From Polyangiaceae bacterium (GTDB lineage Bacteria; Myxococcota_A; Polyangia; Polyangiales; Polyangiaceae): a stretch of 50,568 nt of DNA. Location of the stretch: contig JAICQO010000043.1 of assembly GCA_025937835.1 (NCBI GenBank), forward strand, positions 1-50,568, written 5' to 3'. The notes beneath the pieces are model-generated. The model saw only the letters and a list, made by a program, of their open reading frames with translations, did no database searches and was not told the DNA's origin. The stretch's first letter is position 1; each line of letters begins with the position of its first letter. The position numbers and the translations under genes were made by a program. This document shows positions 28,647 through 45,882 of this stretch, piece by piece.

Positions 28647-29972
28647 CTAGAGCGGTTGCACGCTCGGGTTCGGGATGTTCGTGAGCGTGATGTGCTCGTT
28701 GGCGGATCTCAGCGCCCAAACCTGGGGCGTATTGCAGGTGCCGAAGCCCCAGTCGCCATCGGAACCGGAGTGGAGCTTGCATTGCAAGATCGTCCCGTTG
28801 CTCGCGTCGATCATTTGCTGCGTGATCAGTTCTCCGCGAATGAAGGGGTTGATGAGCTTGTTGGGGCTGGGCTTGGGCGCCCTGAGCACCGCAGCGCTCT
28901 TGCCCTGTTGGCACTCGAGTGATCCCGACCACGTGCTGCCAGCGTCGTTGGTGCTGTTCCAAAAGCTGATGCAATGCTGAAAGCCGCCCCTAAAGCGTCC
29001 GATGACGCCTGCTCTATCCGCTGGCGCGCCGACCACGGTGACCGCACCGTGGGAGACGGCGTGATCGAGCACATTCGCCATCGAGCTCAGGGAGTCGTTG
29101 ATGGCCTCCCCGATGACGCCGCCAGCGTACCCGCGGCCCAGGACGTTGCCATGGGAGTTGATGTCTCTGATCCATGCTCCCTGGGCCTGTCCAACCAAGC
29201 CTCCCGCGAGAATCGAGTAGTTGGTTCCGAAAGCCCAGCTTGGGCTGACGTTCACGTTGGTGAAGATTTCCGAGAGGGTGGACATCGTGCTCAGGGTGTT
29301 GCCGCCGGTGACCTCGCCGACGAATCCACCGATCGTGGTCGTGCGACCCGTTACGGTGCCCGTAGCGTAGGCGCGGCTGACCATGACGCTCTCGCCCATG
29401 GCTCCAAACACCATGCCGACTGCGTTGACCGCGGCCCCACTGGTGGGCCCAGACACGGTCCCGGTGACGTACGACGACGCGACCTCGGAGTTGCCGATTG
29501 TTCCGGCGAGTGCGCCCGTGAAGCCACCGCCGGACACGTTGACGTTCACGAGACCGACACGCTTGATGATCGCGCCCGAGACCGCCGAGAACATCCCCGC
29601 GTACCAGCTACCGCTCGTGATCCTCAGGTTGCTGATCTTTTTATTGTTGCCATCGAACGTGCCCCGAAACGGATTGAAGGGACCTCCGATCGGCACGAAC
29701 TGTTGACCTGGCTGGTTGGTCTGGGACGCATCGATGTCGTTGCCGAGAATGTAGTTTCCCGTCACGGTCATCGCCCGGAGCTGAGCCAGGGTCGTGATGG
29801 TTTGACGTTGCTCGGTCGAACCGAGCGCCTCGGCTGCCTCCCCGATCGGGGCTTCGCGCAGCAAGCCCGCGTCCTCGGAGCCACAGCCGCCGAGGGTCAA
29901 TGCGAGGACCGCCGCCCCGAAAAGCCGTGCCGGACGGCGCACGCGTGCCCAATAGCCATGACATCGATTCAT
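28647..29972 (-). CDS. GLUG-repeat lipoprotein
   Basis: A 441-residue predicted lipoprotein: basic N-terminus, hydrophobic LFGAAVLALTLGGC with lipid cysteine C30. After a short linker comes ITTLAQLRAMTVTGNYILGNDIDAS and FVPIGGPFNPFRGTFDGNNKKISNLRI, the usual lead-in of GLUG-motif proteins. Repeated GLUG-like units follow, such as GGFTGALAGTIGNSEVASSY and GGFVGEVTGGN, which fold as a beta-helix in surface adhesin-like proteins. The last about 90 residues contain two cysteines and WGFGTCNTPQVWAL. The ATG at 29972 has a good Shine-Dalgarno sequence (AAGGTGAGAG). A surface or adhesion role is inferred. Confidence 0.88.
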   Translation of the reverse strand: MNRCHGYWARVRRPARLFGAAVLALTLGGCGSEDAGLLREAPIGEAAEALGSTEQRQTITTLAQLRAMTVTGNYILGNDIDASQTNQPGQQFVPIGGPFNPFRGTFDGNNKKISNLRITSGSWYAGMFSAVSGAIIKRVGLVNVNVSGGGFTGALAGTIGNSEVASSYVTGTVSGPTSGAAVNAVGMVFGAMGESVMVSRAYATGTVTGRTTTIGGFVGEVTGGNTLSTMSTLSEIFTNVNVSPSWAFGTNYSILAGGLVGQAQGAWIRDINSHGNVLGRGYAGGVIGEAINDSLSSMANVLDHAVSHGAVTVVGAPADRAGVIGRFRGGFQHCISFWNSTNDAGSTWSGSLECQQGKSAAVLRAPKPSPNKLINPFIRGELITQQMIDASNGTILQCKLHSGSDGDWGFGTCNTPQVWALRSANEHITLTNIPNPSVQPL

Positions 29973-30040
29973 TTGACTCTCACCTTCGTCGTATGCCGCG
30001 CCCCGGAAATTCCGGACCGATTGTTGATGACTTTGCCGCA

Positions 30041-30063
30041 AGCCGACCAAAAATTGGTCGGCT
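30041..30063. promoter_or_regulatory. Perfect 10-bp inverted repeat upstream of the GLUG gene
   Basis: AGCCGACCAA–AAA–TTGGTCGGCT forms a perfect inverted repeat 69–91 bp upstream of the lipoprotein start, in the gene-free stretch 29973–30580. It could be an operator or a hairpin in the mRNA leader. The same stretch also holds a smaller imperfect hairpin at 30138–30160 (GCTCC…GGAGC) and a longer one at 30302–30343. Confidence 0.5.
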
Positions 30064-30301
30064 CGAACTGATGGGTGACTTCGTCGAGGCACCTCCCGCT
30101 GGCGCTGCTCTGCTACGAGCGGGGTACCCCAGCGACCGCTCCGATTTGAATCGAAGGAGCTCTGAAGTACCCAGCCGCCCCGGCTCCCCAACGGCCGAAC
30201 GCGTCCGCTACCCCGTCGTTCCACCAGGGCGCCTCGAGAGCTCCTGTCTAGCTCGCCTCGACGTCTCGGTCATTGTGGGAGCGCGCCAAATCATTGCGTC
30301 G

Positions 30302-31415: not shown

Positions 31416-33521
31416 CTACGGGCAGATCCTCGCGACCGAGACGTCGTCGGCGAAGAGTGTGATCCCGGGTGCAGGACCCTCGATGTAGACGGCGAGGGAC
31501 GCGAGTGAACAGCTCGGGACGGTGAACTGACCCGATACCTTGGTCCAGCTCCAGCCGTTGCCCGTCGCGGTGCCGAGCTGGGTGTACGTCGCCGGGCTGC
31601 CTGCGCACTCGGACTTCAGGGTCAGTGCCAGTGGCTGGCTCGACGGACCCTGCACCTTCGCCCAGCCTTCGGCGGCGTAGGTCTGTCCGGCCGTGACCTT
31701 GCCGAGGAGGTCTTGCACCGGCCCTTGCCACGACGCCGTGCGGCTCGTCACCTTGCCGCTCAGTTCGCCGCTGCGCACGGGGAAGCCGGTCGTGCCGAGG
31801 GAGCCGCCCCACGTCGTCCAGCCCGAGGTGCCGGACTCGAAGCCAGGATTCAGCAGCACGTTGGACGGATCGCACGCGGGTGGCGTCGTTGGCTCCTGCG
31901 AAATTGGGAGGATGCGGCTGGCAACGTTACCACCCTGAATGGTGATTGTAGCCGCCCTGGTCGCTCCCGTGTAGTTGGGCGTCGCCGTGAGCGAGATTGT
32001 TCCATTGCCGGCGCCGCTTCCGCCCCCGATGCTGAGCCAGCCGCTGCCGTCCGTGGTGTAAGCACTCCACCAGACGGCGTTCGAGTACACGTCGACCGAC
32101 TGGCTCTCGCCCTCGGCGGCCACGCTGAGCGACATCGGGTCGTTGTAGAGGAAGAGCGCCGACTGGCTCACCTGGAAGGTCTTCGTCTGGCCGCCTCCGG
32201 TGACGGTCACGGTGCCAGTCCTGGCCGAACCGGTGGTGTTCGGGGTAGTCGACACGTACAGGTTGTAGGTGCCGTTGGTGCCGCTGTTCGGCGTCACGCT
32301 CAGCCAGGCAGCGCTGGTTGACGCGGACCAGTTCGAGTTGCGGATGATTTGGAAGGACGAGCCACCGCCGCCGCCGGTGGGGGTGGCGCCCTGGCCCGCG
32401 TAGAACTGGAACACTTGGAGGACCCCCACCGATCCGCTGGTGCCTTCGAGCGCGATGTCCGCGCCTCGCTCGTTGTCGGTCAGCGGGTTCGGCGTCACGG
32501 TGACCTCGATGAAGCTCACTCCCGCCCCGCCGGACGTCGGCGAAATCGTGAGCCAGCTCGGCAGAGGGGTGGTCGTGATCGTCCAGGGCTCGGTGGCCGT
32601 GACCTTGTAGACCAGCGGATTGCCGGCGGCCGTGCCCTCGGGAGGCGCGCCGTGGGCGATGGGATTGAGGCTGATCTGCTCTTCGAAGGTGATGTCGGTG
32701 ACGACCGAGAGGGCGTGCGTCCTGCCCCAGATCTCGGTGGCGACGGCGCAGTAGTTCGAAACGGCCAGCGGATACCACTCGAAATCGGCATCGATGAGAG
32801 CCGTCTGGGTGGGCCACCAAGCCAGCATCAGCTGCTCCCACGCCGCGAAGTGCTGGGCCAGATCGACGGGGCCTTGCGACGAGGGCACGCCGTCGAGGGA
32901 CTCGGCGTTGAACTGGAGAAACTTCAACCGCAGCTCCGGGTTTCCACTCGGATTGAGGATGTTCTCTCGCTCCGCGGTTGTGACATGCAGCCGATACATG
33001 CCCTGCGACGTGATGTAGTCTCCGACCACCGCGCCGCCCGCCTTCCCGATGTAGTACTCGACGAGAGGCTGCTCCATCCAACCGTAGACACCCAAGTAGG
33101 TATCCGAGAGCATGGGAGTCGTTTCGACTTCGGTGAGCTCACCAGTGAAGTCGATGATCTCACCGAAGCAGGGCCTCCTCCCTTTGCCTACGACGAAGTT
33201 CGGCCTCGCGATCTCGGTGACGTCCACGTTGTTCACGATCGTCATATACGCTTCCGGGGCCGTCTCCATCAGAGCCGACCCGACGGTGAAGATGCCGTCA
33301 TCGTCGCCTTCAATGTCTCTTTCCCAGTAGGTGATGAACAGGCCGTCCTCGGGATCGATGATCTCCTGATGCACCCGGGGGACGACGATGGCCTGAGTCT
33401 GCGAGCCGACCGCTTCCGAGCCAAGGCGGTCCGGAGTGCTGCACCCGAGGCCCAGGAGTGCCACGGCCATCAGCGTCGCCACGGCACCGAACGATTGGGG
33501 TTTCGCTCCACGATTCTTCAT
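31416..33521 (-). CDS. Divergent GH11 xylanase-like protein with BACON and carbohydrate-binding domains
   Basis: A 701-residue predicted lipoprotein (LMAVALLGLGC, C27). Residues about 50–265 follow the GH11 xylanase fold: PNFVVGKGRRPC, YLGVYGWMEQPLVEYYIG with nucleophile E155 and tyrosines Y146/Y157, ITSQGMYRLHVTTAERENI, GPVDLAQHFAAWEQL, and a candidate acid/base E248 in DADFEWYPLAVSNYC. The usual QYWSVRQ is replaced by unrelated sequence, so activity is uncertain. Three BACON-like repeats follow (about 285–373, 388–453, 462–544; WLTISPTSG, WLSVTPNSG, WLSIGGGSG), often carbohydrate- or mucin-binding. The C-terminus (551–701, NVLLNPGFESGTSGW) resembles CBM4/9-type modules. Gene-free DNA flanks it on both sides. 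A role in binding or cutting plant polysaccharide is inferred. Confidence 0.85.
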   Translation of the reverse strand: MKNRGAKPQSFGAVATLMAVALLGLGCSTPDRLGSEAVGSQTQAIVVPRVHQEIIDPEDGLFITYWERDIEGDDDGIFTVGSALMETAPEAYMTIVNNVDVTEIARPNFVVGKGRRPCFGEIIDFTGELTEVETTPMLSDTYLGVYGWMEQPLVEYYIGKAGGAVVGDYITSQGMYRLHVTTAERENILNPSGNPELRLKFLQFNAESLDGVPSSQGPVDLAQHFAAWEQLMLAWWPTQTALIDADFEWYPLAVSNYCAVATEIWGRTHALSVVTDITFEEQISLNPIAHGAPPEGTAAGNPLVYKVTATEPWTITTTPLPSWLTISPTSGGAGVSFIEVTVTPNPLTDNERGADIALEGTSGSVGVLQVFQFYAGQGATPTGGGGGSSFQIIRNSNWSASTSAAWLSVTPNSGTNGTYNLYVSTTPNTTGSARTGTVTVTGGGQTKTFQVSQSALFLYNDPMSLSVAAEGESQSVDVYSNAVWWSAYTTDGSGWLSIGGGSGAGNGTISLTATPNYTGATRAATITIQGGNVASRILPISQEPTTPPACDPSNVLLNPGFESGTSGWTTWGGSLGTTGFPVRSGELSGKVTSRTASWQGPVQDLLGKVTAGQTYAAEGWAKVQGPSSQPLALTLKSECAGSPATYTQLGTATGNGWSWTKVSGQFTVPSCSLASLAVYIEGPAPGITLFADDVSVARICP

Positions 33522-36586: not shown

Positions 36587-37336
36587 ATGGGTAATGAGAA
36601 CTCCGATCGAGCGGCGCGCACCGAAAAGGCCATGGCGGATACCAAGCTCACGGCCATCCTGGTCGAGGACGAGCAAGCCTCGCGGGAGCGACTGAAGCGC
36701 CTGCTCGCGCGCCACGATCACGTGGAGTTGCTGGCGGAGGCGGAGCAGGGCGAGCAAGCGGTGGAGCTCACGAACCGGCTGCGGCCAGATGTGCTGTTCC
36801 TGGACGTCAGCTTGCCGGGGGTGGACGGGTTCGAAGTCGTGGAGCAGATCCCGAGCCAGACCCGCGTCATTTTCACGACCGCGCACGAGGAATACGCCGT
36901 CCGAGCGTTTCGCGCGAACGCGGTCGATTACCTGCTAAAGCCGATCGACCCGCTGCACCTAGAGTCCGCGCTCGCGCGCGTGACCGAAGCGCTGGCGACA
37001 CGCGGCGATATCGTGCGGCTCCTGTGCCGCGACCGCGATCGGACCCACGTGGTCGACGTCACGGACGTGCTGTTCCTGCGAGCTGAGGACGGGTACACGC
37101 ACGTCCAAACCCGGAACAGTTACCATTTGACGGGCGAGCCTTTGGCCTTATTCGAGAAGCAGCTCGCGTCGAGCTTCGTTCGCGTCCACAGAAACACGCT
37201 CGTCAACGTCAAACACGTCCTGCAACTCAAGCACAACGACGGAGAGCTGATCGCGGTCCTTTCCTCGGACCACGAAGTGGCTGTCAGTCGCAGGCATTCT
37301 CAAGAGTTCCGGCGTCGACTCGCGTACAACTTCTGA
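36587..37336 (+). CDS. LytTR-family response regulator
   Basis: A 249-residue two-component regulator. The receiver (about 20–140) has E27/D28, phospho-acceptor D73 (VLFLDVSLPGVDGFE), T97/T98 and K118 (YLLKP). The C-terminal LytTR DNA-binding domain (about 150–245) shows VDVTDVLFLRAEDGYTHVQT, FVRVHRNTLVNVKHV and VAVSRRHSQEFRRRL. LytTR regulators bind paired direct repeats in promoters. The ATG at 36587 has AGGAAAG four bases upstream. It is the first of five tightly packed genes; the fifth (40355) is a LytS-type kinase, the usual partner class of LytTR regulators, so a cognate pair is inferred. Confidence 0.94.
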   Translation: MGNENSDRAARTEKAMADTKLTAILVEDEQASRERLKRLLARHDHVELLAEAEQGEQAVELTNRLRPDVLFLDVSLPGVDGFEVVEQIPSQTRVIFTTAHEEYAVRAFRANAVDYLLKPIDPLHLESALARVTEALATRGDIVRLLCRDRDRTHVVDVTDVLFLRAEDGYTHVQTRNSYHLTGEPLALFEKQLASSFVRVHRNTLVNVKHVLQLKHNDGELIAVLSSDHEVAVSRRHSQEFRRRLAYNF

Positions 37337-37351
37337 AGAAGAGGTCCGTTC

Positions 37352-38746
37352 ATGTTCGAGTACAACGATGTCGAGGGCCGAGCTGCGCTCCGGCTCAGCG
37401 CCGCCGCGCGCGCCGACCTGCAGTGCAACATCATCAATTCTACGAAGCGTGTGCGCTCACTACAGCTGTTCGTGCGCTTCGACACGGTCGCTGCATTCCG
37501 AGACTGGCTGGCCACCACCCCCGCCGTCACCCGCGAGGCGGATCGCGGGGCCTCGGATCGTGACGTCAACTTGCTCTTCACCGCACAGGGCTTGGCCAAG
37601 CTCGGAGCGCCGCTGGCGGACATCGCCGCCGCCGATCCGGCTTTTGCCCGGGGCGCGCGGCACCCGCAAACTCGGGAGCTGCTGCGCGATCCCGACCCGG
37701 CGAACTGGCCGAACCACGAGCACATCTGGGACGCCGCGCTGCTGATCCACTCCGACTCCGACGCAGTCGGCGTCAATCCCCCCGCGAGAGGTGAATTCCA
37801 GATCGAGCGCGGAAACTCGATCGGAGCCGATGGGATGCCGCTGAACGATCCACGAGCGCGCCGTTTCAACCACTTCGGTTACGTCGAAGGCCTGAGCGCC
37901 ATCTACTACGAAGATCCACCTGACGGTTTGCCCGCGATGAAAAACTACGATCCGCGGCGGCGACTCTCGACCGTGCTGGTCCGCGATCCGTACGCCCGGG
38001 CACCCAGCAGCTTTGGCTCGTTCTTCGTGTTCCGCAAGTATGCGATGAATCGAGCCGCGTTCGACCTCAAAGTCCAGAACATCGCCCGCGCGATCCAGGA
38101 ACGAGAAGCGGATCCGAACAGCAGGGCCGCCAAGCTGACCCAGCGCTTCCCCGAGTTTCGCAATCCGAAGACGCGCGAGGAGCTCGAGGAGCTGGTCAGG
38201 GCCTGGCTCATGGGTCGATATCCCGACGGCCGGCCCCTGGTGGCGCCGAACGAGATCGGCAACGACTTCACGCTGGACGCGGCCGGGGTTCAATGCCCGT
38301 TCCACGCGCACATCGCCAAGATGAATCCTCGCGGACGCACCGGTGACCTGGATAGCGAGCACCGCGCGACCATCGCGCGTTGTGGGATCTCCTACGGCAA
38401 CCGCGACAGCCCCGAAAAAGGCCTGCTTTTCTGGTGCGCCCAGGCCAGCATCGCCAAGCAGTTCGAGTTCGTTCAGCAGCAATGGGCGAACGACCAGGAC
38501 GTCGACCTCACCAAGCGCGCCACTCCCGACCTCGACAACGTGATCGGTAAACGGGTGGACCCGCAACCCTTCGAGTTTCCGGTCGATCCGTACCCGAACA
38601 TGAAGCGCTACGACCGCTGGAAAGATCGAATCGACCAGGACTTCGGCGTGTACGACACGATCACGCTTCAAGGCGCCGAGTACCTGTTCGCGCCGAGCGT
38701 GTCCGGAGTCGAGAACCTCAAAGCGATCACGACGGTGAGAGCATGA
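37352..38746 (+). CDS. DyP-type haem peroxidase family protein
   Basis: A 464-residue member of the dye-decolourising peroxidase family. Seen are VNLLFTAQGLAKLG (72–85), the proximal histidine region CPFHAHIAKMNPR (H320; usual form CPFGAHIRxxNPR), ISYG, and GLLFWCAQASIAKQFEFVQQ near the C-terminus. In the distal GxxDG motif the catalytic aspartate is replaced: the sequence reads GYVEG (176–180, E179), which may alter or retain peroxide chemistry. No signal peptide is seen. A strong Shine-Dalgarno sequence (GAAGAAGAGG) precedes the ATG, 15 bp after the regulator gene; the stop overlaps the next gene by four bases. DyP enzymes oxidise dyes, lignin-like phenols or porphyrins; the substrate here is unknown. 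Confidence 0.88.
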   Translation: MFEYNDVEGRAALRLSAAARADLQCNIINSTKRVRSLQLFVRFDTVAAFRDWLATTPAVTREADRGASDRDVNLLFTAQGLAKLGAPLADIAAADPAFARGARHPQTRELLRDPDPANWPNHEHIWDAALLIHSDSDAVGVNPPARGEFQIERGNSIGADGMPLNDPRARRFNHFGYVEGLSAIYYEDPPDGLPAMKNYDPRRRLSTVLVRDPYARAPSSFGSFFVFRKYAMNRAAFDLKVQNIARAIQEREADPNSRAAKLTQRFPEFRNPKTREELEELVRAWLMGRYPDGRPLVAPNEIGNDFTLDAAGVQCPFHAHIAKMNPRGRTGDLDSEHRATIARCGISYGNRDSPEKGLLFWCAQASIAKQFEFVQQQWANDQDVDLTKRATPDLDNVIGKRVDPQPFEFPVDPYPNMKRYDRWKDRIDQDFGVYDTITLQGAEYLFAPSVSGVENLKAITTVRA

Positions 38747-39318
38747 TTCCGCGCACCCCCCTCTCGTTCCTCTATCACATCACCGAAGCGGCGCCTTACC
38801 GGGACGAGATGCACCACGACATGCGCCAGGCGTTTCGCCGCTTCGAGATCGCGGAGGTGTTGCGGCCGGCGGCGTTCAACGTCGAGCGCGCCTCGTTCGA
38901 GCAGCGCGTCGACGAGCCGGAGGAGCTCACCGTACCGCTCGATGTCGCGACCGATATGCTGTTTCTCGGCATCGTGCCTGCGCTCGATAGCGAGCTCCAG
39001 CTCGGAACGGACGCTGAAGACCAGCCCGTCAAGACGGCGTACGACGACCCGCGCATGACGCTCCTGCACGCCACGTACCTGCTATTTTACTCCCGTGCGT
39101 ACCGGGACGAACACCCCGAGCCGCCTGCCGTCGCCGGCCCGCCCTACGCGAAAGTCGATCTGCCGGCTTTTGCCGAGTCCTGGAGCTTCATTCGAGACGC
39201 GCTGCGGAAGCCCGTCGGCATGCGCCCGAGCCCGGCCCAGACGACGCCCCATCTCGCGCGGATGATGCGCAGCCTGGCCGCCGAGTTCGCCGGCGGGATC
39301 TGGGCTTTTTGCTGGTAG
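38743..39318 (+). CDS. Protein of unknown function in the DyP operon (X)
   Basis: A 191-residue soluble-looking protein, not recognised. It starts at an ATG overlapping the DyP stop (ATGA), so it is probably translated with it. The sequence is mixed helical: YHITEAAPYRDEMHHDMRQAFRRFE near the start with several His and Asp/Glu residues, a central DVATDMLFLGIVPALDSELQLG, and a C-terminal helix RMMRSLAAEFAGGIWAFCW ending in an unusual Trp/Phe/Cys-rich tail. No signal peptide or membrane span is clear. Coupling to DyP suggests a partner, maturation or substrate-handling role; that is inference. Confidence 0.8.
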   Translation: MIPRTPLSFLYHITEAAPYRDEMHHDMRQAFRRFEIAEVLRPAAFNVERASFEQRVDEPEELTVPLDVATDMLFLGIVPALDSELQLGTDAEDQPVKTAYDDPRMTLLHATYLLFYSRAYRDEHPEPPAVAGPPYAKVDLPAFAESWSFIRDALRKPVGMRPSPAQTTPHLARMMRSLAAEFAGGIWAFCW

Positions 39319-39322
39319 AACG

Positions 39323-40339
39323 ATGGCGTTTGCGTCGGGGCTCTTTGCTGAGGTCGGCGGGTTCCTGCCCCGGTTTCTGGAGCCGCACGCGCTTGCGTGG
39401 TGCGAGCGCGTCGCGGCGACGGTGCCGGGGGTAGCGCGCTCGCACTACGTCGAGTGCCGTCTCGAGGGCTCGCCGCGCGTGGACTTCATGTCGTGTTTCG
39501 CGCGCGGCACGCTGGGTGCCACGTTTCGGACCCGCGTGCACGAACTCGGCGCTCGCAGCGCTGCTTGGCGGTCGAACGGCAGACTGATCGACGAGTGGCA
39601 GCGTCCTGGCGGCAGCCTGGAAGGTGCCCCCTTCTTGTGGCTCGAGTACGACGCGCCGGCGACGTCCGGCCGTGGGGTATTGGAGGCGAGTCCGTCGCTC
39701 GCAATCGAGTCGAACTATTACGAACGCCATCGTCAGTCTCGCGCGGGCCTGTGCGCCGCCGAGCGCTCGCTCGTCCACGAGACGCTGAACGCGGCCGCTT
39801 CGGGTCCGGCAAACGCCGGGCCCGCCGTGACCCGCTGCCTTGACGCGCTGCCGCCCCGCGGCTCGATCGGCTACGTGTCGGTGATGTCGGCGCGAGCGCC
39901 GATCACCGTCAAGCTGTTCGTGATCCTGCCGCGGGCCGATGTTCGGGAGTTTCTTCAACGCGCCGAGTGGAGTGGCGACCTGCCGAACGCGCTGGAGCTT
40001 CTGGACTCCTTTTACGAGCCCTCGGTCCGGACCGCGTACCTCGACCTCACGATCTCGGACCGGCTGGAGGAGCGTCTCGGGATCGCCTCCTCACAGTTTC
40101 AGAATCGAGAAGGGGCGGGTGGTAGCGGTGCGCGCCGGTCGCGTCCGCGACTTCCGCCGTCGCTTGCAGCGGAAGCGCGTGAGCTCGAGCGCTGGCCCGG
40201 CCTTCAGCTCGGCTGGTTGGAGGGGATCCCGTGCTGGGTGCTGCGCTGGCTCGACATCAAAGCGGTACTCGATGGCAATACCGTGGAGTACAAGGCCTAT
40301 CTCGGTTTCATGCGTCGCTTGCCGCGGGATCGGAACTAG
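39323..40339 (+). CDS. Protein of unknown function in the DyP operon (Y)
   Basis: A 338-residue soluble-looking protein, not recognised. It begins 4 bp after the previous stop with FASGLFAEVGGFLPRFLEPH; a middle part reads SIGYVSVMSARAPITVKLFVIL and the C-terminus WPGLQLGWLEGIPCWVLRWLDIKAVLD. Arginine and aromatic content is high and third codon positions are strongly G/C, supporting coding. No signal peptide or transmembrane helix is evident. It lies between the DyP/X pair and the large sensor, with a 15-bp gap to the latter, so it belongs to the operon. Its function cannot be read from the sequence. Confidence 0.8.
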   Translation: MAFASGLFAEVGGFLPRFLEPHALAWCERVAATVPGVARSHYVECRLEGSPRVDFMSCFARGTLGATFRTRVHELGARSAAWRSNGRLIDEWQRPGGSLEGAPFLWLEYDAPATSGRGVLEASPSLAIESNYYERHRQSRAGLCAAERSLVHETLNAAASGPANAGPAVTRCLDALPPRGSIGYVSVMSARAPITVKLFVILPRADVREFLQRAEWSGDLPNALELLDSFYEPSVRTAYLDLTISDRLEERLGIASSQFQNREGAGGSGARRSRPRLPPSLAAEARELERWPGLQLGWLEGIPCWVLRWLDIKAVLDGNTVEYKAYLGFMRRLPRDRN

Positions 40340-40354
40340 AGGATAGACGACGGC

Positions 40355-43300
40355 ATGCACGCGCTCCCTCGAGGGTACGAACCGGTCGGGGCGCTGATCG
40401 ACATCGCCGGGGGCAGCCTGCAGCGGGTGCAATTCGAGCAGGACGGGCGAAGCTACTGGCTGAAGGGCTTCCACGCTGAATACCCGTCCGACGCGACGCT
40501 GCGCCGGATCGAAGCCGAGCTCCGGGTGAGCGTCGTGGGCGACTCGATACTGCCGGCCCTGACGCGGATCGACGGCGAGCGCACGTGCTGGGTGCTGTAC
40601 GGCGACCACGCCGGGTCCCCTCTGCGTCTGGACGGCGACTGGACGGTGGAGGCGTTCTTTCGCGTCGCGCTCGGGGTTGCCGCTGCGCTCTCGGACGCCC
40701 ACCGAGAGGGTCTGTTGCTGGGCCGCCTCGAGCCGGGCTCGATGCTCTGGGACGAGGCGAGCCAGTCCGCGGCGTTGCTCGGCGCGGTCACACGAGCCGA
40801 CTGCAGCACGCTGCGCGCCTCGAGCCGCTCGCGTTACGACGCGCCCGAAGTGCTCGAGGCACCCGAGGCGGACGTCACCCCCGCCGCGGATGTCTACTCG
40901 CTGGGCTTGATCCTGGACGCCATCCGCCCGCAAGTGAACGGCCGCATACCGGAAGCGCTCGTCGAGCTGCTCGAGCGCATGTTGAGCCGCTCCCCCGCCG
41001 ATCGACCGGCCACTGCGCAAGTCGTGCTCGACGAGTTGCGGGCGTGCGGCTCGAGCGGGGGCGGTCCGCGCCCGAGGCCGTCGTTGCCGCCGGATCCGAG
41101 CGTGGGTCGCGAGCGCGAGTTCGAGGCGCTCACCCGCCTCGCTGCGAGCTCCGACGACGGCCCAGGGAGCATGATCCTGGTGTCGGGCGAACCAGGGATC
41201 GGAAAGTCGTCGATGCTGGCGAGGCTGCGGAGCTGGGCAAAGTCGCAAGGGCGTCCGGTCGCGCATGGCAAATTCGATCAGTACAAGCAAGGCCGACCTT
41301 ACAGCGCGTTGCTCACCGCGCTGGAGGGCGCGATCGACCTGGCGCTCGCCCGCGAGGAGGCGAGCTACCAGCGTCACCGGCAGCGGTTTGCCAGCGCGAA
41401 CCGCACGCTGCTCGCCGTGCTGCGGTCGGAGCTGCCGCGGCTCGAGCACGTCATGGGCTCACTGCCGAAGCCCGCGCAACTCGGGCCTTCGGAGACCGAC
41501 GTGCGATTCAAGGGCGCGTTCCGCCACCTGCTCGATTGCCTGAACGAGCCGGCGCGACCATTGCTCTTGGTGCTCGACGACATGCAGTGGGCCGACCGCG
41601 CGACCCTGGACGTGCTCAAAGATTGGCAGCTCTCGGGCCTCCCGGAACGGATGGCGCTGGTCTGCGGCTACCGCGAGGGTGAGCTCGGCAACCAGGCCCG
41701 CGATTTCCTCGACTCGCTCGACGGGGTGCCCCGCGTCCGGCTGCTCCCGCTCGAGGCCGAGGCGATCTTCCACCTGTGCTCGAGGCTGTTGCCGGACACG
41801 CCGGAGTTGCAAGAGCTGGCCAGCGCTGTCCACCGCCAGAGCCGAGGCAATCCGCTGCATGCGCTCGAGATGCTGAAGAGCGTGGCCTCGGGAAACGGCG
41901 CGCACGAGGGCGGCGACCCGCACTCGCGGCTGCGGTTGATCAACGCCTCGGACACCGTGCTCGATCTCATGACGCTCCGGCTTCGCGAGTTCGACGACCT
42001 CACGCAAGCGACGCTGATCGCGGCGTCGTGCGCCGGTCCTCAGTTCAGCTCGGTGCTCCTCTCCGTGGCGCTCGACGAGGAGGCGCGCGCGGTGGCGGGC
42101 GCGCTGCGCGCGGCCGCGAACGCCGGCGTGGTCTGGGCAAGCCCCGACGCGGAGGATTCGTACTCTTTCGCTCACGACCGCATGCAGCAGGCCGCATTCT
42201 CGCTAGGTTCCGAGCCGGACAAGCAAGCGGTGCGGTTGCGGCTGGGGCGTCACTACCTGAAAGGGGCCACCACCAGCCGTGAATGCCTGTACGGCGCCGT
42301 CGAGCACCTGAACCACGTGAGAGAGGCGTTGCTCGCGGAGGAGCGGAAGGAGCTCGCGCGCCTGAACTGGAAGGCCGCGTTCCTCGCGAAGGAATCGATC
42401 GCTTACGAGCGGGCAGTCACGTTGTTCCGCGCATTTCAGGAGGACGAACGAGCACTGAACGAAGAAGAGCGCTTCGCGGCCGCGCTCGCGCTCGCCGAGT
42501 GCGTGTTCCTCACGTCGACGCTGGAGGTCGCGGAGGTCGCGCTCGGACAAGCGCTGCGCACGGCGCCGTCGCCCCAGCGCGAACACGTGGTGATGCTCAC
42601 GTGGCAGGAGATTTGCCAGCATCAACAGCGTTACTCCGCGGCGATCAAGATCCTGTTGAACGGACTGGCTCAGCTCGGACGTTCGCTGCCGGAGCGCCCC
42701 AGCATCCCGCGCGTGCTGGCCGGGCTCGCTCGCCTCTTGTATCGCACGCGCAAGCTCGAGCCGCGCACGCTGGCAGCGCGAGCAGACCTCGCGACGCCGG
42801 AACAACGCGCCGAGCTCGAGCTGCTGTTGATGCTCTGGGGACCGTCACTCTGGACCAACCAGCTCTTGAACGGGCTGGTCGTGATCCGGATGATGACGCT
42901 GACTCTGAGGATCGGCAACGCGCCGGGGACGGCGATGGCCTACGTCTGCTTCGCGGTGTTGAACCACGTGCTGCTGCAACGCCACGAGCGAGCCCTCGAA
43001 TTCGCGAAGCTCGGCGTGGCAGCGCTCGACGACGAGGGCAACGCCAGCGTGGCCACGCGCGTCCGCTTCCTTTCCCTCACGTTCTTCGGGGCTTTCGAGC
43101 GAACCCCCCAGGAGAACGTGGCGTGCTACGAGCGAGCGCTGCAGCAGTGTCTCGCCCGAGGCGAGCTGCTGGCAAGCCATTTGCTGGACGGGATCGTCAC
43201 GACGCTGCCTTGCCACGGGTACTCGCTCGGCCAAGGGATCGCGGCCTTGAGCCGTTACGAACGCGAGGCAAGACAAGTCCGAGCCGAGTCGACGCTCGAG

Positions 43301-45025
43301 CTTGTCGCATTGGTGCGGGAATGGGCTGGAAAGCTGTCGGAAGACGTGGCTCGCCCGCTCGCCGACTTCCCAATCACGTTCCCGTCGTACATCGGCGTGC
43401 GCGGCCTCCTTTCCATGGAGCTCGAGTATCTGTGGGAACACGACGACCAGGTGCTGTCGATAGCCGAGTCGATCCGGAAGGACGTCGTGACGCGGGCGAA
43501 CCCGCTCCACGCCGCGACTTACGGGCTGTTCTTGGTGATGGCGCAGTGTCGAGGCCCCCGCCGGCTCGACCGGGACGGCCGGCGCGCGCTGAAGACGCTG
43601 GCCCGCTTCGCTGCCATCTACCCGCCCAACTTTCGCTCGCTGCTGAGCCTGGCCCAGGCCGAGGTCACCGCCCTCGAGGGCCGGCCGGAGCTCGCGATCC
43701 CCGCTTATCGCGTGGCCATCGCCGAGGCCAGCGCTGCCGGACACGAGCTGTTTCACGCGCTCGCGCTGGAGCGGTTGGCGTGCTTCCACGACTTGCACGG
43801 AGAGCGCGAGGCGCGGGACGACTGCTTACGTGCCTCGACGTTTGCTTACGCCCGCTTCGGAGCACAGGCCAAGGTCGATCAGCTCCGGAGCCGATACCCG
43901 GACGCGGAGTTCCAGCCTTCGGGCGCGTCCGAGCCGACCGCGGCCCTCGTCGATCTGCGTCTCGAGGCGGTGATGAAGGCCGCATGGGCGATCGCGGAGG
44001 AGACCTCGAGCGAGCGGCTCGCGCCGACCCTGGTGCAGATCGTCGCCACCGCGGCCCACGCCGGGCGCGCCGTGCTGTTGCAGCGGCTCGGTGAAAACTG
44101 GATGACGCTGTCGGCGTGGCAGCTCAACACGGGCGACCTTTTAGCCAAGCCGCTCGCGCTCGATCGCTGCGAGCTCCTGTCCCACTCGGTGGTCCGCTAC
44201 GCGACGCGGACCAATCAAATCGTGAACGTGGCCGGCGCCGACGATCGGTTTACGGACGATCCCTACTTTGCCCGTGTCCAGCCGCGCTCGGTGCTGTGTG
44301 TGCCCGTTTCGCACCGGGGCGCCGTCAGCGCCATCCTGTACCTCGAGAACAGCCTGTATTCGGCCATGTTCACGGCGGACCAGGCGCGGCTCGTGTCGCT
44401 GCTCGGCACGCAAGCCGCGATCGCCCTCTCAAACTCGGAGACGCACCGGCTGGAGCTCGAATCCGTGCAGTCGCGAGTGAACCCGCATTTTCTCTACAAC
44501 GCGCTCAGCGTGGTCGCCGAGCTCGTGGCCACACAGCCGGAACGCGCGGAGGGCGTGATCTTGAAGCTCGCCCGGCTGTATCGAACCATGGTCAACAGCT
44601 CGGCCGACAGGATGGTGACGCTGGGTCAGGAGTTGGAGCTGGTCCGCGACTATCTGGAGCTCGAGCAGGCGCGATTCGGAGCCAAGCTGCGCGTGGAATG
44701 GCAGGTGGACGGGGAGCTGTATCCCGCCAGCATTCCGTCGCTGCTGCTGCAGCCGCTGGTCGAGAACGCCGTGCACCACGGGATCCGGCGCAAGGTCGGG
44801 ACGGGCACCGTGCGTGTCTCCGCCGCGAAACGCGAGTCGGCGTTACACCTGTCGATCAGCGACGACGGGCCGGGATGGTACGGGGGCAACGGCGGGTCGG
44901 GCTTCGGGCTGCGCAGCGTCGAGAAGCGAATCAAGCTCGTCTACGGCGAGGGGGCCCGGCTTCGAATCGCACACGAGGGCGGGGTCAGTGTGCAGCTCGA
45001 GCTGCCGCTGCCGGGTAGCAACTGA
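40355..45025 (+). CDS. Giant pseudokinase–AAA ATPase–GAF–LytS-type sensor histidine kinase
   Basis: A 1556-residue sensor. Residues about 10–230 resemble a Ser/Thr kinase, but the catalytic loop reads LLGRLEPGSMLW in place of HRDLKxxN and DFG reads LGA, while YDAPEV and ADVYSLGLIL remain: a pseudokinase. An AAA/NACHT-like ATPase follows with VGRE (250), Walker A GEPGIGKS (K284) and Walker B LLLVLDDMQW (D408/D409). A long helical, TPR-like region spans about 640–1190 and a GAF domain about 1200–1360. The C-terminal His_kinase module of the LytS class has H1378 in SRVNPHFLYNAL and N1471 in LVENAVHHG. No membrane span is apparent. Last gene of the RR–DyP operon, it probably phosphorylates the LytTR regulator at 36587. 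Confidence 0.92.
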   Translation: MHALPRGYEPVGALIDIAGGSLQRVQFEQDGRSYWLKGFHAEYPSDATLRRIEAELRVSVVGDSILPALTRIDGERTCWVLYGDHAGSPLRLDGDWTVEAFFRVALGVAAALSDAHREGLLLGRLEPGSMLWDEASQSAALLGAVTRADCSTLRASSRSRYDAPEVLEAPEADVTPAADVYSLGLILDAIRPQVNGRIPEALVELLERMLSRSPADRPATAQVVLDELRACGSSGGGPRPRPSLPPDPSVGREREFEALTRLAASSDDGPGSMILVSGEPGIGKSSMLARLRSWAKSQGRPVAHGKFDQYKQGRPYSALLTALEGAIDLALAREEASYQRHRQRFASANRTLLAVLRSELPRLEHVMGSLPKPAQLGPSETDVRFKGAFRHLLDCLNEPARPLLLVLDDMQWADRATLDVLKDWQLSGLPERMALVCGYREGELGNQARDFLDSLDGVPRVRLLPLEAEAIFHLCSRLLPDTPELQELASAVHRQSRGNPLHALEMLKSVASGNGAHEGGDPHSRLRLINASDTVLDLMTLRLREFDDLTQATLIAASCAGPQFSSVLLSVALDEEARAVAGALRAAANAGVVWASPDAEDSYSFAHDRMQQAAFSLGSEPDKQAVRLRLGRHYLKGATTSRECLYGAVEHLNHVREALLAEERKELARLNWKAAFLAKESIAYERAVTLFRAFQEDERALNEEERFAAALALAECVFLTSTLEVAEVALGQALRTAPSPQREHVVMLTWQEICQHQQRYSAAIKILLNGLAQLGRSLPERPSIPRVLAGLARLLYRTRKLEPRTLAARADLATPEQRAELELLLMLWGPSLWTNQLLNGLVVIRMMTLTLRIGNAPGTAMAYVCFAVLNHVLLQRHERALEFAKLGVAALDDEGNASVATRVRFLSLTFFGAFERTPQENVACYERALQQCLARGELLASHLLDGIVTTLPCHGYSLGQGIAALSRYEREARQVRAESTLELVALVREWAGKLSEDVARPLADFPITFPSYIGVRGLLSMELEYLWEHDDQVLSIAESIRKDVVTRANPLHAATYGLFLVMAQCRGPRRLDRDGRRALKTLARFAAIYPPNFRSLLSLAQAEVTALEGRPELAIPAYRVAIAEASAAGHELFHALALERLACFHDLHGEREARDDCLRASTFAYARFGAQAKVDQLRSRYPDAEFQPSGASEPTAALVDLRLEAVMKAAWAIAEETSSERLAPTLVQIVATAAHAGRAVLLQRLGENWMTLSAWQLNTGDLLAKPLALDRCELLSHSVVRYATRTNQIVNVAGADDRFTDDPYFARVQPRSVLCVPVSHRGAVSAILYLENSLYSAMFTADQARLVSLLGTQAAIALSNSETHRLELESVQSRVNPHFLYNALSVVAELVATQPERAEGVILKLARLYRTMVNSSADRMVTLGQELELVRDYLELEQARFGAKLRVEWQVDGELYPASIPSLLLQPLVENAVHHGIRRKVGTGTVRVSAAKRESALHLSISDDGPGWYGGNGGSGFGLRSVEKRIKLVYGEGARLRIAHEGGVSVQLELPLPGSN

Positions 45026-45195
45026 GCTCGACGGCGCACGACCGCCGAGAGAACCAGATCTGCCGTCTGCCCCGTCCAAGCAACCGTTGGGGGTATTCCC
45101 CCTTCGGTGGCGGGCGGGCGGCGCGTAGATCGAGTCACGCCGTGCACTTTCCGCCGACCGGCTGGATCCGCTTCTCGCACGGCAGTGGGAGGACC

Positions 45196-45882
45196 ATGGA
45201 CATTTCGAGCCTAGTGTTTCGGGACCAGGTAGTGGCCGCGGAGACCCTGCGTCCGGAGCCCGTCGACGCGGCCTCCGTCTGGGATTCGTTGTGCGTCGGC
45301 ACGACCGAGATCCGGGGCGTGTTCTCGACCGTCGATCGTCACTATTTCGTAACCGCCAGCCGAGCGGTTCCGCACGGCCGTGTCGAGGGGCGGCAGCGAC
45401 GCATCCTCGAGGCCGTGCTGCACGGCGCGCCGCCGAAAACGCTCTCGTACGATCTCAACCTCTCGAACTCGACCATCGCCGGCGAGCTCAAGCAGTGCCT
45501 GCACTGTTTCGGGCTCGATTGCCTGCCCTCGCACACTCCGATTTTATTGCTCATGATCGCAAACGCCGCTCGCGAGCAGCGCCTGCTCGAGGGCGGCATC
45601 GCGGCGGAGCTCGCCTGGGAGGGCACGCAGTACCGGAGCATCAGCGCGAGCCGTCCTGAAGCGACGCTGCGGAAGCTGCTACCGCCGGCCGAGTTCAGCG
45701 TGATCTCGATGTTGATCAACGGCGCGAGTCACAAGACGATGGCTGCCGTGCGCCACCGCTCGCCGCGCACGATCGCCAATCAGCTCGCCTCCGCATTCCA
45801 GCGACTCGGCGTCTCCGGGCGCGGCGGGGTGCTGGCGCAACTCGTGGCGCAGCGCGCACCGGGCGCACGAGCGGCGTCGTGA
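45196..45882 (+). CDS. Regulator with two LuxR-like helix-turn-helix segments
   Basis: A 228-residue protein with two helix-turn-helix-like regions. The first (about 64–106) reads EGRQRRILEAVLHGAPPKTLSYDL. The second (about 162–207) reads PAEFSVISMLINGASHKTMAAV, then SPRTIANQLASAFQRLGVSGR. Both follow the LuxR/GerE layout with the typical length between helices; the second is closer to consensus. No receiver or ligand domain is present. GGGAGG at 45187–45192 supports the ATG at 45196 over an earlier in-frame codon at 45142. It starts 170 bp after the giant sensor gene on the same strand, so it may have its own promoter but belong to the same circuit. Confidence 0.85.
   Translation: MDISSLVFRDQVVAAETLRPEPVDAASVWDSLCVGTTEIRGVFSTVDRHYFVTASRAVPHGRVEGRQRRILEAVLHGAPPKTLSYDLNLSNSTIAGELKQCLHCFGLDCLPSHTPILLLMIANAAREQRLLEGGIAAELAWEGTQYRSISASRPEATLRKLLPPAEFSVISMLINGASHKTMAAVRHRSPRTIANQLASAFQRLGVSGRGGVLAQLVAQRAPGARAAS

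What the first reader, a model, noticed from the sequence alone, without database searches (positions are those of the whole stretch)
36587..45882. Candidate undescribed signalling operon: LytTR regulator – DyP peroxidase – two unknown proteins – giant pseudokinase/GAF/LytS sensor
Five genes on one strand are separated by 15, -4, 4 and 15 bp, so they are almost certainly one transcript; a double-HTH regulator follows 170 bp later. A LytTR/LytS-class pair bracketing a haem peroxidase and two unrecognised proteins is not an arrangement I know from described systems. The sensor combines pseudokinase, ATPase, helical repeats, GAF and histidine kinase in one 1556-residue chain. A redox- or small-molecule-responsive peroxidase system is inferred from the gene content.
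Basis: partly seen in the sequence, partly recalled or inferred. Interest (0 to 1): 0.9.

Follow-up and report, generated by a model that had tools for sequence, protein, structure and literature searches.

The report
Sensor operon with peptide-prenylation pair
A bacterial operon flagged as a peroxidase signalling system most likely carries a small protein and an unrecognised enzyme that adds a fatty (prenyl) group to it, under its own sensor, which would be a new variant of how bacteria make, and possibly sense, a modified peptide.

Summary
The peroxidase is not the conserved core. Y (39323-40339) has no family in Pfam, NCBIfam or PADLOC, yet the 20 best Foldseek matches of its predicted fold are all ABBA prenyltransferases. 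Y belongs to an unnamed family in this phylum, often found with a small protein carrying a RiPP-leader-like N-terminus and with large Ser/Thr-kinase-AAA regulators. One homologue starts 9 bp after the YcaO cyclodehydratase of a TOMM/NHLP RiPP cluster. In the clade of the window's Y (support 0.82) the small partner ends in tryptophan in 5 of 5 loci, X included; background 5 of 260 genes, 0 of 21 partners elsewhere. PalX/PalQ (C-terminal Trp prenylation of an NHLP peptide) is a close precedent with an unrelated enzyme fold. Best reading: X is the substrate, Y its ABBA-type prenyltransferase, and the pseudokinase-AAA-GAF-LytS kinase with its LytTR partner controls or senses the product. Fold and linkages are computed; catalysis, substrate and signal are inferred. 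New variant of a known kind.

The parts
36587..37336 (+). Response regulator with LytTR DNA-binding domain (start may be 36632)
   Evidence: Pfam Response_reg 85.6 bits, LytTR 75.1 bits
37352..38746 (+). DyP-type peroxidase relative, nearest solved structures DyP2 (4g2c) and Alr1585 (5c2i); GXXDG motif reads FGYVEG, CPFHAHI kept
   Evidence: PDB phmmer E 2.6e-35 and 7.6e-28; PF20628 22.1 bits; TIGR01413 64.4 bits, below the cut-off of 100.5
38743..39318 (+). X: small partner protein, leader-like N-terminus (weak), C-terminal ..GGIWAFCW
   Evidence: No family. Ranks 1 of 2435 with a profile of the 4 other Trp-ending partners, 14.4 bits, E 0.005; terminal Trp shared by 5 of 5 clade members
39323..40339 (+). 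Y: ABBA (prenyltransferase-barrel) fold protein of an unnamed family
   Evidence: Model pLDDT 62.9, pTM 0.69, ten strands in alpha-beta-beta-alpha order; 20 best Foldseek matches all ABBA prenyltransferases; VIA Z up to 15.3; E44, K313, K324, Y326 kept in every sequence that reaches them
40355..45025 (+). Sensor: pseudokinase - AAA_16 - helical region - GAF - LytS-type histidine kinase, 1556 aa
   Evidence: Pfam; kinase motifs lost, NPHFLYN at 1376 and N/G boxes present; region 248-706 matches TIGR03903 TOMM_kin_cyc 76.5 bits, below the cut-off of 705.75
45142..45882 (+). GerE/LuxR-type regulator with two HTH-like stretches; homologue near Y in the same genus
   Evidence: Pfam GerE 32.4 bits; homologue in L077 at E 8.2e-23 in a small search

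Best explanation
X and Y are a peptide substrate and its modifying enzyme: Y is an ABBA-fold peptide prenyltransferase that recognises X through its leader-like N-terminus and attaches an isoprenyl group near the C-terminus, most likely on the terminal tryptophan. The sensor kinase and LytTR regulator in the same operon switch the operon and may respond to the product; the DyP is an accessory oxidant. Shown by computation: operon layout, Y's predicted fold, the Y family, its link to leader-like partners, kinases and (once) a RiPP cluster, and the shared terminal Trp in one clade. Inferred: catalysis, X as substrate, Trp as acceptor, what is sensed.
For: Y fold: the 20 best Foldseek matches are ABBA prenyltransferases, all 14 with E<=0.001 among them, and rank 21 falls to probability 0.09; the 50 VIA rows shown have Z 12.9-15.3 over 257-294 residues and are all prenyltransferases. 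In 32 Y proteins E44 is kept in 32; K313, K324 and Y326 in all 31 that reach them; position 197 is Arg or Lys in 30 of 31 (first seen with 29 sequences). A Y homologue (L114) starts 9 bp after a YcaO/SagD cyclodehydratase (TIGR03604 268.3 bits, cut-off 219.25), with an NHLP precursor (75.5, cut-off 50.9) and exporter (TIGR03796 864, cut-off 853.3) in the same stretch. Leader-like protein in 18 of 27 Y loci against 0 of 20 control loci; in six later loci of genus g269 it is directly before Y in 6 of 6 at E 0.003-0.025, control loci none at E<=1. C-terminal Trp in 5 of 5 partners of the window's clade (support 0.819), 5 of 260 control genes. Precedents: PalX/PalQ (PMC10853753, passages); MppC (PMC12715784, passages); [quoted passage not shown]
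Against: No sequence-level link from Y to known ABBA families: PDB profile searches gave none, hhalign against two PF11991 proteins 2%. The Y model has modest confidence (pLDDT 62.9; five models 47.7-62.9). By eye against L079 and L080, the Arg and K-x-Y diphosphate contacts of DMATS enzymes are only partly kept; the RiPP-cluster homologue L114 itself lacks the basic residue at 197 (Leu). X's kinship to the other partners is weak (E 0.005), its direct match to the L077 partner is no better than shuffles, and its fold prediction failed (pLDDT 47). Partners outside the clade do not end in Trp (0 of 21). X is long (191 aa) for a precursor. Among the 16 window proteins scanned with Pfam there is no YcaO, no ABC exporter and no clear maturation protease (one M26_N/Glug match at 28650-30224).
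Confidence: 0.47

Rival explanations
1. Y is a catalytically dead or repurposed ABBA barrel that binds X (its C-terminal Trp entering the barrel) and acts as a chaperone, scaffold or ligand-sensing partner of the kinase, with no prenylation.
For: The usual DMATS diphosphate residues are only partly visible in Y (by eye); partners outside the clade lack the Trp; Y is more often near signalling kinases than near biosynthesis genes (one RiPP cluster).
Against: E44 in 32 of 32, and K313, K324, Y326 in 31 of 31 that reach them; one homologue is in a RiPP biosynthesis cluster.
Confidence: 0.25
2. One reading: a redox- or small-molecule-responsive peroxidase system in which the DyP is the output and X and Y are helpers.
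For: Same operon; DyP-family proteins lie within 15 kb of Y in 6 of 24 Y genomes from 3 lineages, in Polyangium as a DyP with a P450-like end (by eye) next to a Ser/Thr-kinase-AAA gene.
Against: Close DyP homologue only in the own genome among 59; in 18 of 24 Y genomes no DyP-family protein lies near Y.
Confidence: 0.12
3. A ComQXPA-like peptide signalling loop: the prenylated peptide leaves the cell or acts inside it and is sensed by the kinase, which phosphorylates the LytTR regulator and raises its own operon. (An extension of the best explanation; listed apart because the signal is a separate claim.)
For: Same set of parts as ComQ, ComX, ComP and ComA (gene roles of ComP and ComA recalled): modifying enzyme, precursor with Trp, histidine kinase, response regulator together; ComX is a Trp-prenylated quorum-sensing RiPP (PMC10853753, passage).
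Against: No clear membrane span in the sensor (best 19-residue window 1.66) and no exporter among the window proteins scanned; in the same genus (L077) the neighbouring kinase is a Ser/Thr kinase with no histidine-kinase domain found.
Confidence: 0.12
4. An anti-phage or conflict system built around the kinase.
For: Kinase-domain hits to PADLOC models such as mad6 and PD-T4-6, strong for the kinases of L044 and L077, weak for the window sensor.
Against: These are generic kinase-domain matches; DyP, X and Y have no PADLOC hit.
Confidence: 0.03

Closest known systems
PalX/PalQ, C-terminal Trp prenylation of an NHLP peptide in Paenibacillus (PMC10853753, passages)
   Same: Leader-type precursor with a conserved C-terminal Trp next to a prenyltransferase gene
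   Different: PalQ has the isoprenoid-synthase fold; Y has the ABBA barrel. X is longer and its leader is only weakly similar to its own relatives and to no leader model
Cyanobactin prenyltransferases (PagF, PirF and relatives)
   Same: Alpha-beta-beta-alpha barrel acting on RiPPs (PMC13290415, passage); PirF (6pgm) is Foldseek rank 18
   Different: No sequence family match; cyanobactin enzymes act without the leader (PMC12715784, passage)
MppC/MppE lanthipeptide geranyltransferase (PMC12715784, passages)
   Same: Prenylation of a Trp that needs a structured Nif11-like leader
   Different: Acts beside a lanthionine synthetase, not seen here; the passages read do not name the MppC fold
ComQXPA quorum-sensing locus of Bacillus
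   Same: Modifying enzyme, Trp-bearing precursor, histidine kinase and response regulator in one cluster (partly recalled)
   Different: ComQ fold differs; the sensor here has no clear membrane span; signalling untested
TOMM_kin_cyc kinases (TIGR03903)
   Same: The kinase beside the Y homologue in L027 is a full member (957.7 bits, cut-off 705.75); the window sensor shares part of the region
   Different: The window sensor is below the cut-off (76.5 bits), has a dead kinase domain, no cyclase match, and a GAF-LytS end
HstK-type and fungal group X kinases with a Ser/Thr-kinase front and histidine-kinase end (recalled)
   Same: Kinase-like domain, ATPase, GAF and histidine kinase in one chain
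   Different: LytS-type His_kinase (PF06580), pseudokinase front, LytTR partner

Membership tests
ABBA aromatic prenyltransferases | Ten-stranded alpha-beta-beta-alpha barrel | tested here: met
   Predicted model, Foldseek, VIA Z up to 15.3; a prediction of modest confidence, not a solved structure
ABBA aromatic prenyltransferases | Match to a known sequence family | tested here: not met
   No Pfam or NCBIfam hit for Y; no ABBA chain in PDB profile searches; hhalign with a PF11991 pair 2%
ABBA aromatic prenyltransferases | Catalytic Glu and diphosphate-binding Lys/Arg/Tyr | tested here: inconclusive
   E44 on strand 1, K313, K324, Y326 kept throughout, K/R197 in 30 of 31, but no superposition of residues was possible
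ABBA aromatic prenyltransferases | Prenyl transfer activity | not testable with these tools
   Needs an enzyme assay
NHLP/Nif11-type RiPP precursor (for X) | Leader domain of TIGR03793 or sister models | tested here: not met
   X hits no NCBIfam model at E<=1
NHLP/Nif11-type RiPP precursor (for X) | Kinship to the leader-like partners of other Y genes | tested here: inconclusive
   Rank 1 of 2435 with each of four profiles, best E 0.005; fold of X unresolved
TOMM cluster | YcaO cyclodehydratase in the cluster | tested here: not met
   None among the 16 window proteins scanned; met for the homologue L114
TOMM_kin_cyc (TIGR03903) | Score above the equivalog cut-off | tested here: not met
   Window sensor 76.5 bits, cut-off 705.75
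DyP-type peroxidase | DyP domain with haem-binding His region | tested here: met
   PF20628 22.1 over 20; CPFHAHI at 315; PDB DyP2 E 2.6e-35; TIGR01413 64.4, under its cut-off 100.5
DyP-type peroxidase | GXXDG motif | tested here: not met
   FGYVEG at 175; Alr1585 (5c2i) also lacks the Asp (FGFVHG)
LytS/LytTR two-component system | PF06580 kinase with NPHF motif and LytTR response regulator | tested here: met
   His_kinase 80.2 bits, LytTR 75.1 bits; NPHFLYN at 1376
ComQXPA | Trans-isoprenyl-synthase-fold ComQ | tested here: not met
   Y's model matches the ABBA barrel instead

The most novel reading that the evidence does not exclude
A self-contained, ComQXPA-like signalling operon invented independently with an ABBA-fold enzyme: Y prenylates the C-terminal tryptophan of X, the DyP tailors it, and a soluble pseudokinase-AAA-GAF-LytS kinase senses the lipopeptide and drives the operon through the LytTR regulator. 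It would be one branch of a phylum-wide family of leader-protein/ABBA-barrel pairs wired to Ser/Thr-kinase-AAA regulators.
Probability: 0.15. Interest if true: 0.88.

Novelty: new variant of a known kind. Interest (0 to 1): 0.67.

Why it matters
If right, an unnamed protein family found in several families of this phylum is a new class of peptide prenyltransferase, visible through its predicted fold because the sequence models tried here miss it. In one clade its partners share a C-terminal tryptophan, which makes the reaction testable in one experiment. The frequent company of large Ser/Thr-kinase-AAA regulators would tie RiPP-type peptide chemistry to eukaryote-like signalling, and would give a context for TOMM-associated kinases, which the one paper looked at only mentions (PMC2887384, passage). 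It would also offer a leader-guided, position-specific way to lipidate peptides.

Tried and rejected
Rejected: the DyP as conserved core. Sequence-level proof that Y is an ABBA enzyme failed three ways; the top PDB hits (polyprotein E 0.005, GGDEF) do not fit the fold and were treated as chance. A direct pairwise match of X with the L077 partner is not significant (316 of 500 shuffles reach it); only the profile is suggestive. In one search a profile of six leaders was beaten by 1 of 1000 shuffles of X, one of two leaders by 0 of 1000. An anti-phage reading rests on generic kinase hits. The window's Y alone has no match among plasmids at E<=0.01. The C-terminal Trp rule fails outside the clade, so it is claimed for the clade only. 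Fold of X alone was poor.

An error of mine, found on checking: the L113 row of alignment A6 and of the tree was translated in the wrong frame. It is why one search reports no fully invariant column and why G060 shows a second match (that row matching itself). Searches used A6 with this one bad row of 28. redoes alignment and tree with the right frame: the clade of five stays, support 0.819 instead of 0.927 (inner branches as low as 0.086, L005 is a 146-residue fragment), and the polar residues are kept better. The lower support is why I took the best explanation from 0.48 to 0.47.

Weaknesses of the counts: the profiles were built partly from the loci counted. Leader profile: 9 of 27 loci used, and 9 of the other 18 hit, several of them sister Polyangium loci. 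Kinase-AAA profiles: 7 of 27 used, and 10 of the other 20 have both in one ORF. A hit counts anywhere in the stretch; in L034 and L035 the leader protein follows Y. X itself is not found by the leader profile at 0.01. Control loci come from six large genomes at round positions that I chose, not random draws. Loci from one genus are not independent. The g269 leader hits were listed at E<=0.01 for a smaller search; at the scale they are E 0.003-0.025 and only 1 of 6 passes 0.01. Upstream small ORFs (60-260 aa) were seen for 19 of the 33 Y entries, of which 4 end in Trp; with L077 and the six this gives 5 of 5 in the clade and 0 of 21 outside. A large fused ORF with a leader hit at L113, which does not end in Trp either, is not in that count. 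For the alignment I dropped two duplicate loci, one fragment and one weak spurious hit. The L077 partner was not called by my gene finder; it was read as the ORF directly before Y, with a start that I chose, and the listing that showed it also asked for ORFs ending in W.

Literature: term searches showed nothing on an ABBA-type enzyme of this kind in myxobacteria; I saw the listed titles and abstract starts only (20 of 25, 15 of 19, 8 of 9, 12 of 32 and 8 of 19 papers; none found in 56 and 119), plus passages of five papers. Absence in print is claimed for those searches only.
Full report
OBSERVATION. The five ORFs lie on the + strand at the stated places with gaps of 15, -4, 4 and 15 bp. The kinase-like front of the sensor is dead by motif (HRD to LGR, DFG to LGA) while the histidine-kinase boxes are present. 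The window is a whole contig of an unnamed 6.9 Mb genome. Its family includes a genome whose contigs have the lengths of named Polyangium sp. 15x6 records, so a Polyangiaceae relative is inferred.

Y IS A FAMILY. With Y alone, 3 of 282 genomes of the phylum match, own included; X alone finds only itself (1 of 282). A profile of four Y proteins finds 13 of 377 genomes, a profile of 16 finds 16 of 108 in the same family and 17 of 377 in the phylum, and a profile of 28 (one row of it in a wrong frame, see Tried and rejected) finds 5 of 90 in the class of G266 and 9 of 29 in the order of G216. The weakest matches are short and may be chance. Most genomes searched have no Y.

WHAT Y IS. AlphaFold2 on the window's Y with six relatives gave pLDDT 62.9, pTM 0.69, and alpha-beta-beta-alpha order with ten strands. 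The 20 best Foldseek matches in the PDB are all ABBA prenyltransferases (AmbP1 E 3.0e-5, CloQ, NphB/Orf2, FamD1, PirF, CdpNPT, DMATS1); all 14 with E<=0.001 are among them and rank 21 drops to probability 0.09. VIA-align gives Z 15.3 for MpnD and 14.6 for CymD, 4.3 A over 282-283 residues. In 32 aligned Y proteins E44 is kept in 32, K313, K324 and Y326 in the 31 that reach them, D54, E108 and D110 in 31 of 32, and position 197 is Arg or Lys in 30 of 31 (the 29-sequence alignment agrees). E44 is on strand 1 and the K-x-Y at 324-326 on the last strand of the model, which is what I would expect of an ABBA active site from general knowledge, but I could not superpose residues. No sequence-level link to known ABBA families was found.

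WHAT TRAVELS WITH Y. In 27 Y loci against 20 control stretches: Ser/Thr-kinase plus AAA_16 in one ORF 16 against 2, AAA_16 19 against 3, leader-like small protein 18 against 0 (limits under Tried and rejected). Pfam confirms Pkinase plus AAA_16 proteins within a few genes of Y in L004, L026, L027, L029, L042, L044 and L077. At L036 a weak Pkinase (26.6 bits, below cut-off) with AAA_16 is followed, in broken frames, by a GAF-HisKA-HATPase ORF, which resembles the window sensor. The L027 kinase is a full TOMM_kin_cyc member, 957.7 bits over 705.75. In six loci of genus g269, not used to build the profiles, a leader-like protein is directly before Y in 6 of 6 (E 0.003-0.025 at the scale, control loci none at E<=1) and a kinase-AAA ORF is present in 4 of 6. 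L113 has a kinase-AAA ORF, L114 and L115 none. In L030 and L040 the leader and TIG-like part appears fused to an FG-GAP protein directly before Y (by eye; the leader profile hits only the L040 copy, as L069). DyP-family proteins lie within 15 kb of Y on the same contig in 6 of 24 Y genomes: the window, G216, and four genomes of the Polyangium genus that share one locus; in 8 further genomes a DyP-family protein is present but not near Y. In Polyangium it is a DyP with a P450-like end (motif by eye) next to another kinase-AAA gene.

THE RIPP LINK. In G143 (L114) a Y homologue (E 4e-29) starts 9 bp after a protein with TIGR03604 SagD cyclodehydratase (268.3 bits, cut-off 219.25) and TIGR03882 leader-binding (145.3, cut-off 36.9); an NHLP precursor (TIGR03793, 75.5, cut-off 50.9, opposite strand) and the NHLP exporter (TIGR03796, 864, cut-off 853.3; TIGR03797 and TIGR03794 below their cut-offs) follow within 10 kb. 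This is one locus; a second Y in the same genome (L115) has no such genes around it. The small partners elsewhere hit LigA, IniB N-terminal, NHLP Os17 and TOMM-peptide models only weakly, all under cut-off.

THE TERMINAL TRYPTOPHAN. X ends ..GIWAFCW. The partners at L027, L070 and L005 end ..RDFW..PPIW and ..SVW. A FastTree of 32 Y proteins puts these four Y with L077 in one clade, support 0.819 in the corrected tree (0.927, which held one wrong-frame row). After the first tree the L077 partner was read as the ORF whose stop overlaps the start of Y (202 aa): it ends ..GFPPWW. That is 5 of 5; of partners outside the clade, 0 of 15 and 0 of 6 end in Trp; of 260 control genes 5 do. With a profile of the four other partners X ranks 1 of 2435 (14.4 bits, E 0.005, next 3.1); the shared parts are a hydrophobic N-terminal motif and a C-terminal L..E..W pattern. 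At L077, in the window's own genus, a homologue of the GerE-type gene (E 8.2e-23) is also near Y.

MECHANISM. PalX is an NHLP-type precursor with a conserved C-terminal Trp that PalQ prenylates (PMC10853753, passages); MppC geranylates a Trp only when a structured Nif11-like leader is attached (PMC12715784, passages); a review describes alpha-beta-beta-alpha-barrel RiPP enzymes such as cyanobactin prenyltransferases and NctPC (PMC13290415, passages). The simplest account is that Y binds the leader-like end of X and prenylates its tail. Why a sensor is in the operon is open: it may regulate production by an intracellular cue through GAF, or sense the product itself as in ComQXPA. The DyP could oxidise the tail or remove peroxide. 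Steps shown by computation: layout, predicted fold, family, linkages, terminal Trp. Steps inferred: activity, substrate, site, signal.

VERDICT. Filed as a new variant of a known kind: it would work like a leader-guided peptide prenylation cassette, but Y is not a member of any known ABBA sequence family tested and X is not a member of a known leader family by the models tested.

Noticed in passing
L114:7057-19899: A TOMM/NHLP RiPP cluster in another genome (G143) with a Y homologue 9 bp after its cyclodehydratase; its precursor ends in SCCL, so any acceptor there would not be a terminal Trp.
   Followed up: yes
L118:9486-12449, L119:8185-11271, L120:7398-10478: Polyangium-genus proteins joining a DyP part to a P450-like end (CIG motif by eye), beside a Ser/Thr-kinase-AAA gene and, in four genomes, within 15 kb of Y.
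   Followed up: partly
L079 (G000:C60:157-903): The window's own genome holds a Trp_DMAT (PF11991) prenyltransferase relative at a contig end, so a second ABBA-type protein is present.
   Followed up: partly
L030:1782-4112, L040:5522-7996: FG-GAP protein apparently fused to a leader-like plus TIG-like part, directly before Y; elsewhere these are separate genes.
   Followed up: partly
L027:9587-11038, L070:10757-12235: Unrecognised lipoprotein-like proteins after Y; L027 carries a CMGCH motif typical of c-type haem (recalled), where the window has another haem protein (DyP) on the other side of X and Y.
   Followed up: no
L115:8736-9644: A methyltransferase with weak resemblance to geranyl diphosphate 2-C-methyltransferase (65.9 bits, cut-off 400; the best hit is sarcosine/dimethylglycine N-methyltransferase, 74.5, cut-off 550) next to a distant Y homologue.
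   Followed up: no
L028/L044, L077, L078, L138, L141, L142: FHA-domain proteins near the Y genes (Pfam FHA shown for L077; others by eye), fitting Ser/Thr-kinase signalling.
   Followed up: partly
L036:12210-13556: A subtilisin-like protease (weak mycosin and PatA matches) near Y; a possible maturation protease.
   Followed up: no
window 31416-33521: Protein with GH11 xylanase-like, BACON and CBM4_9 domains upstream of the operon.
   Followed up: no
window 36587-36632: The regulator has a second in-frame ATG at 36632 that fits the response-regulator domain start better.
   Followed up: no
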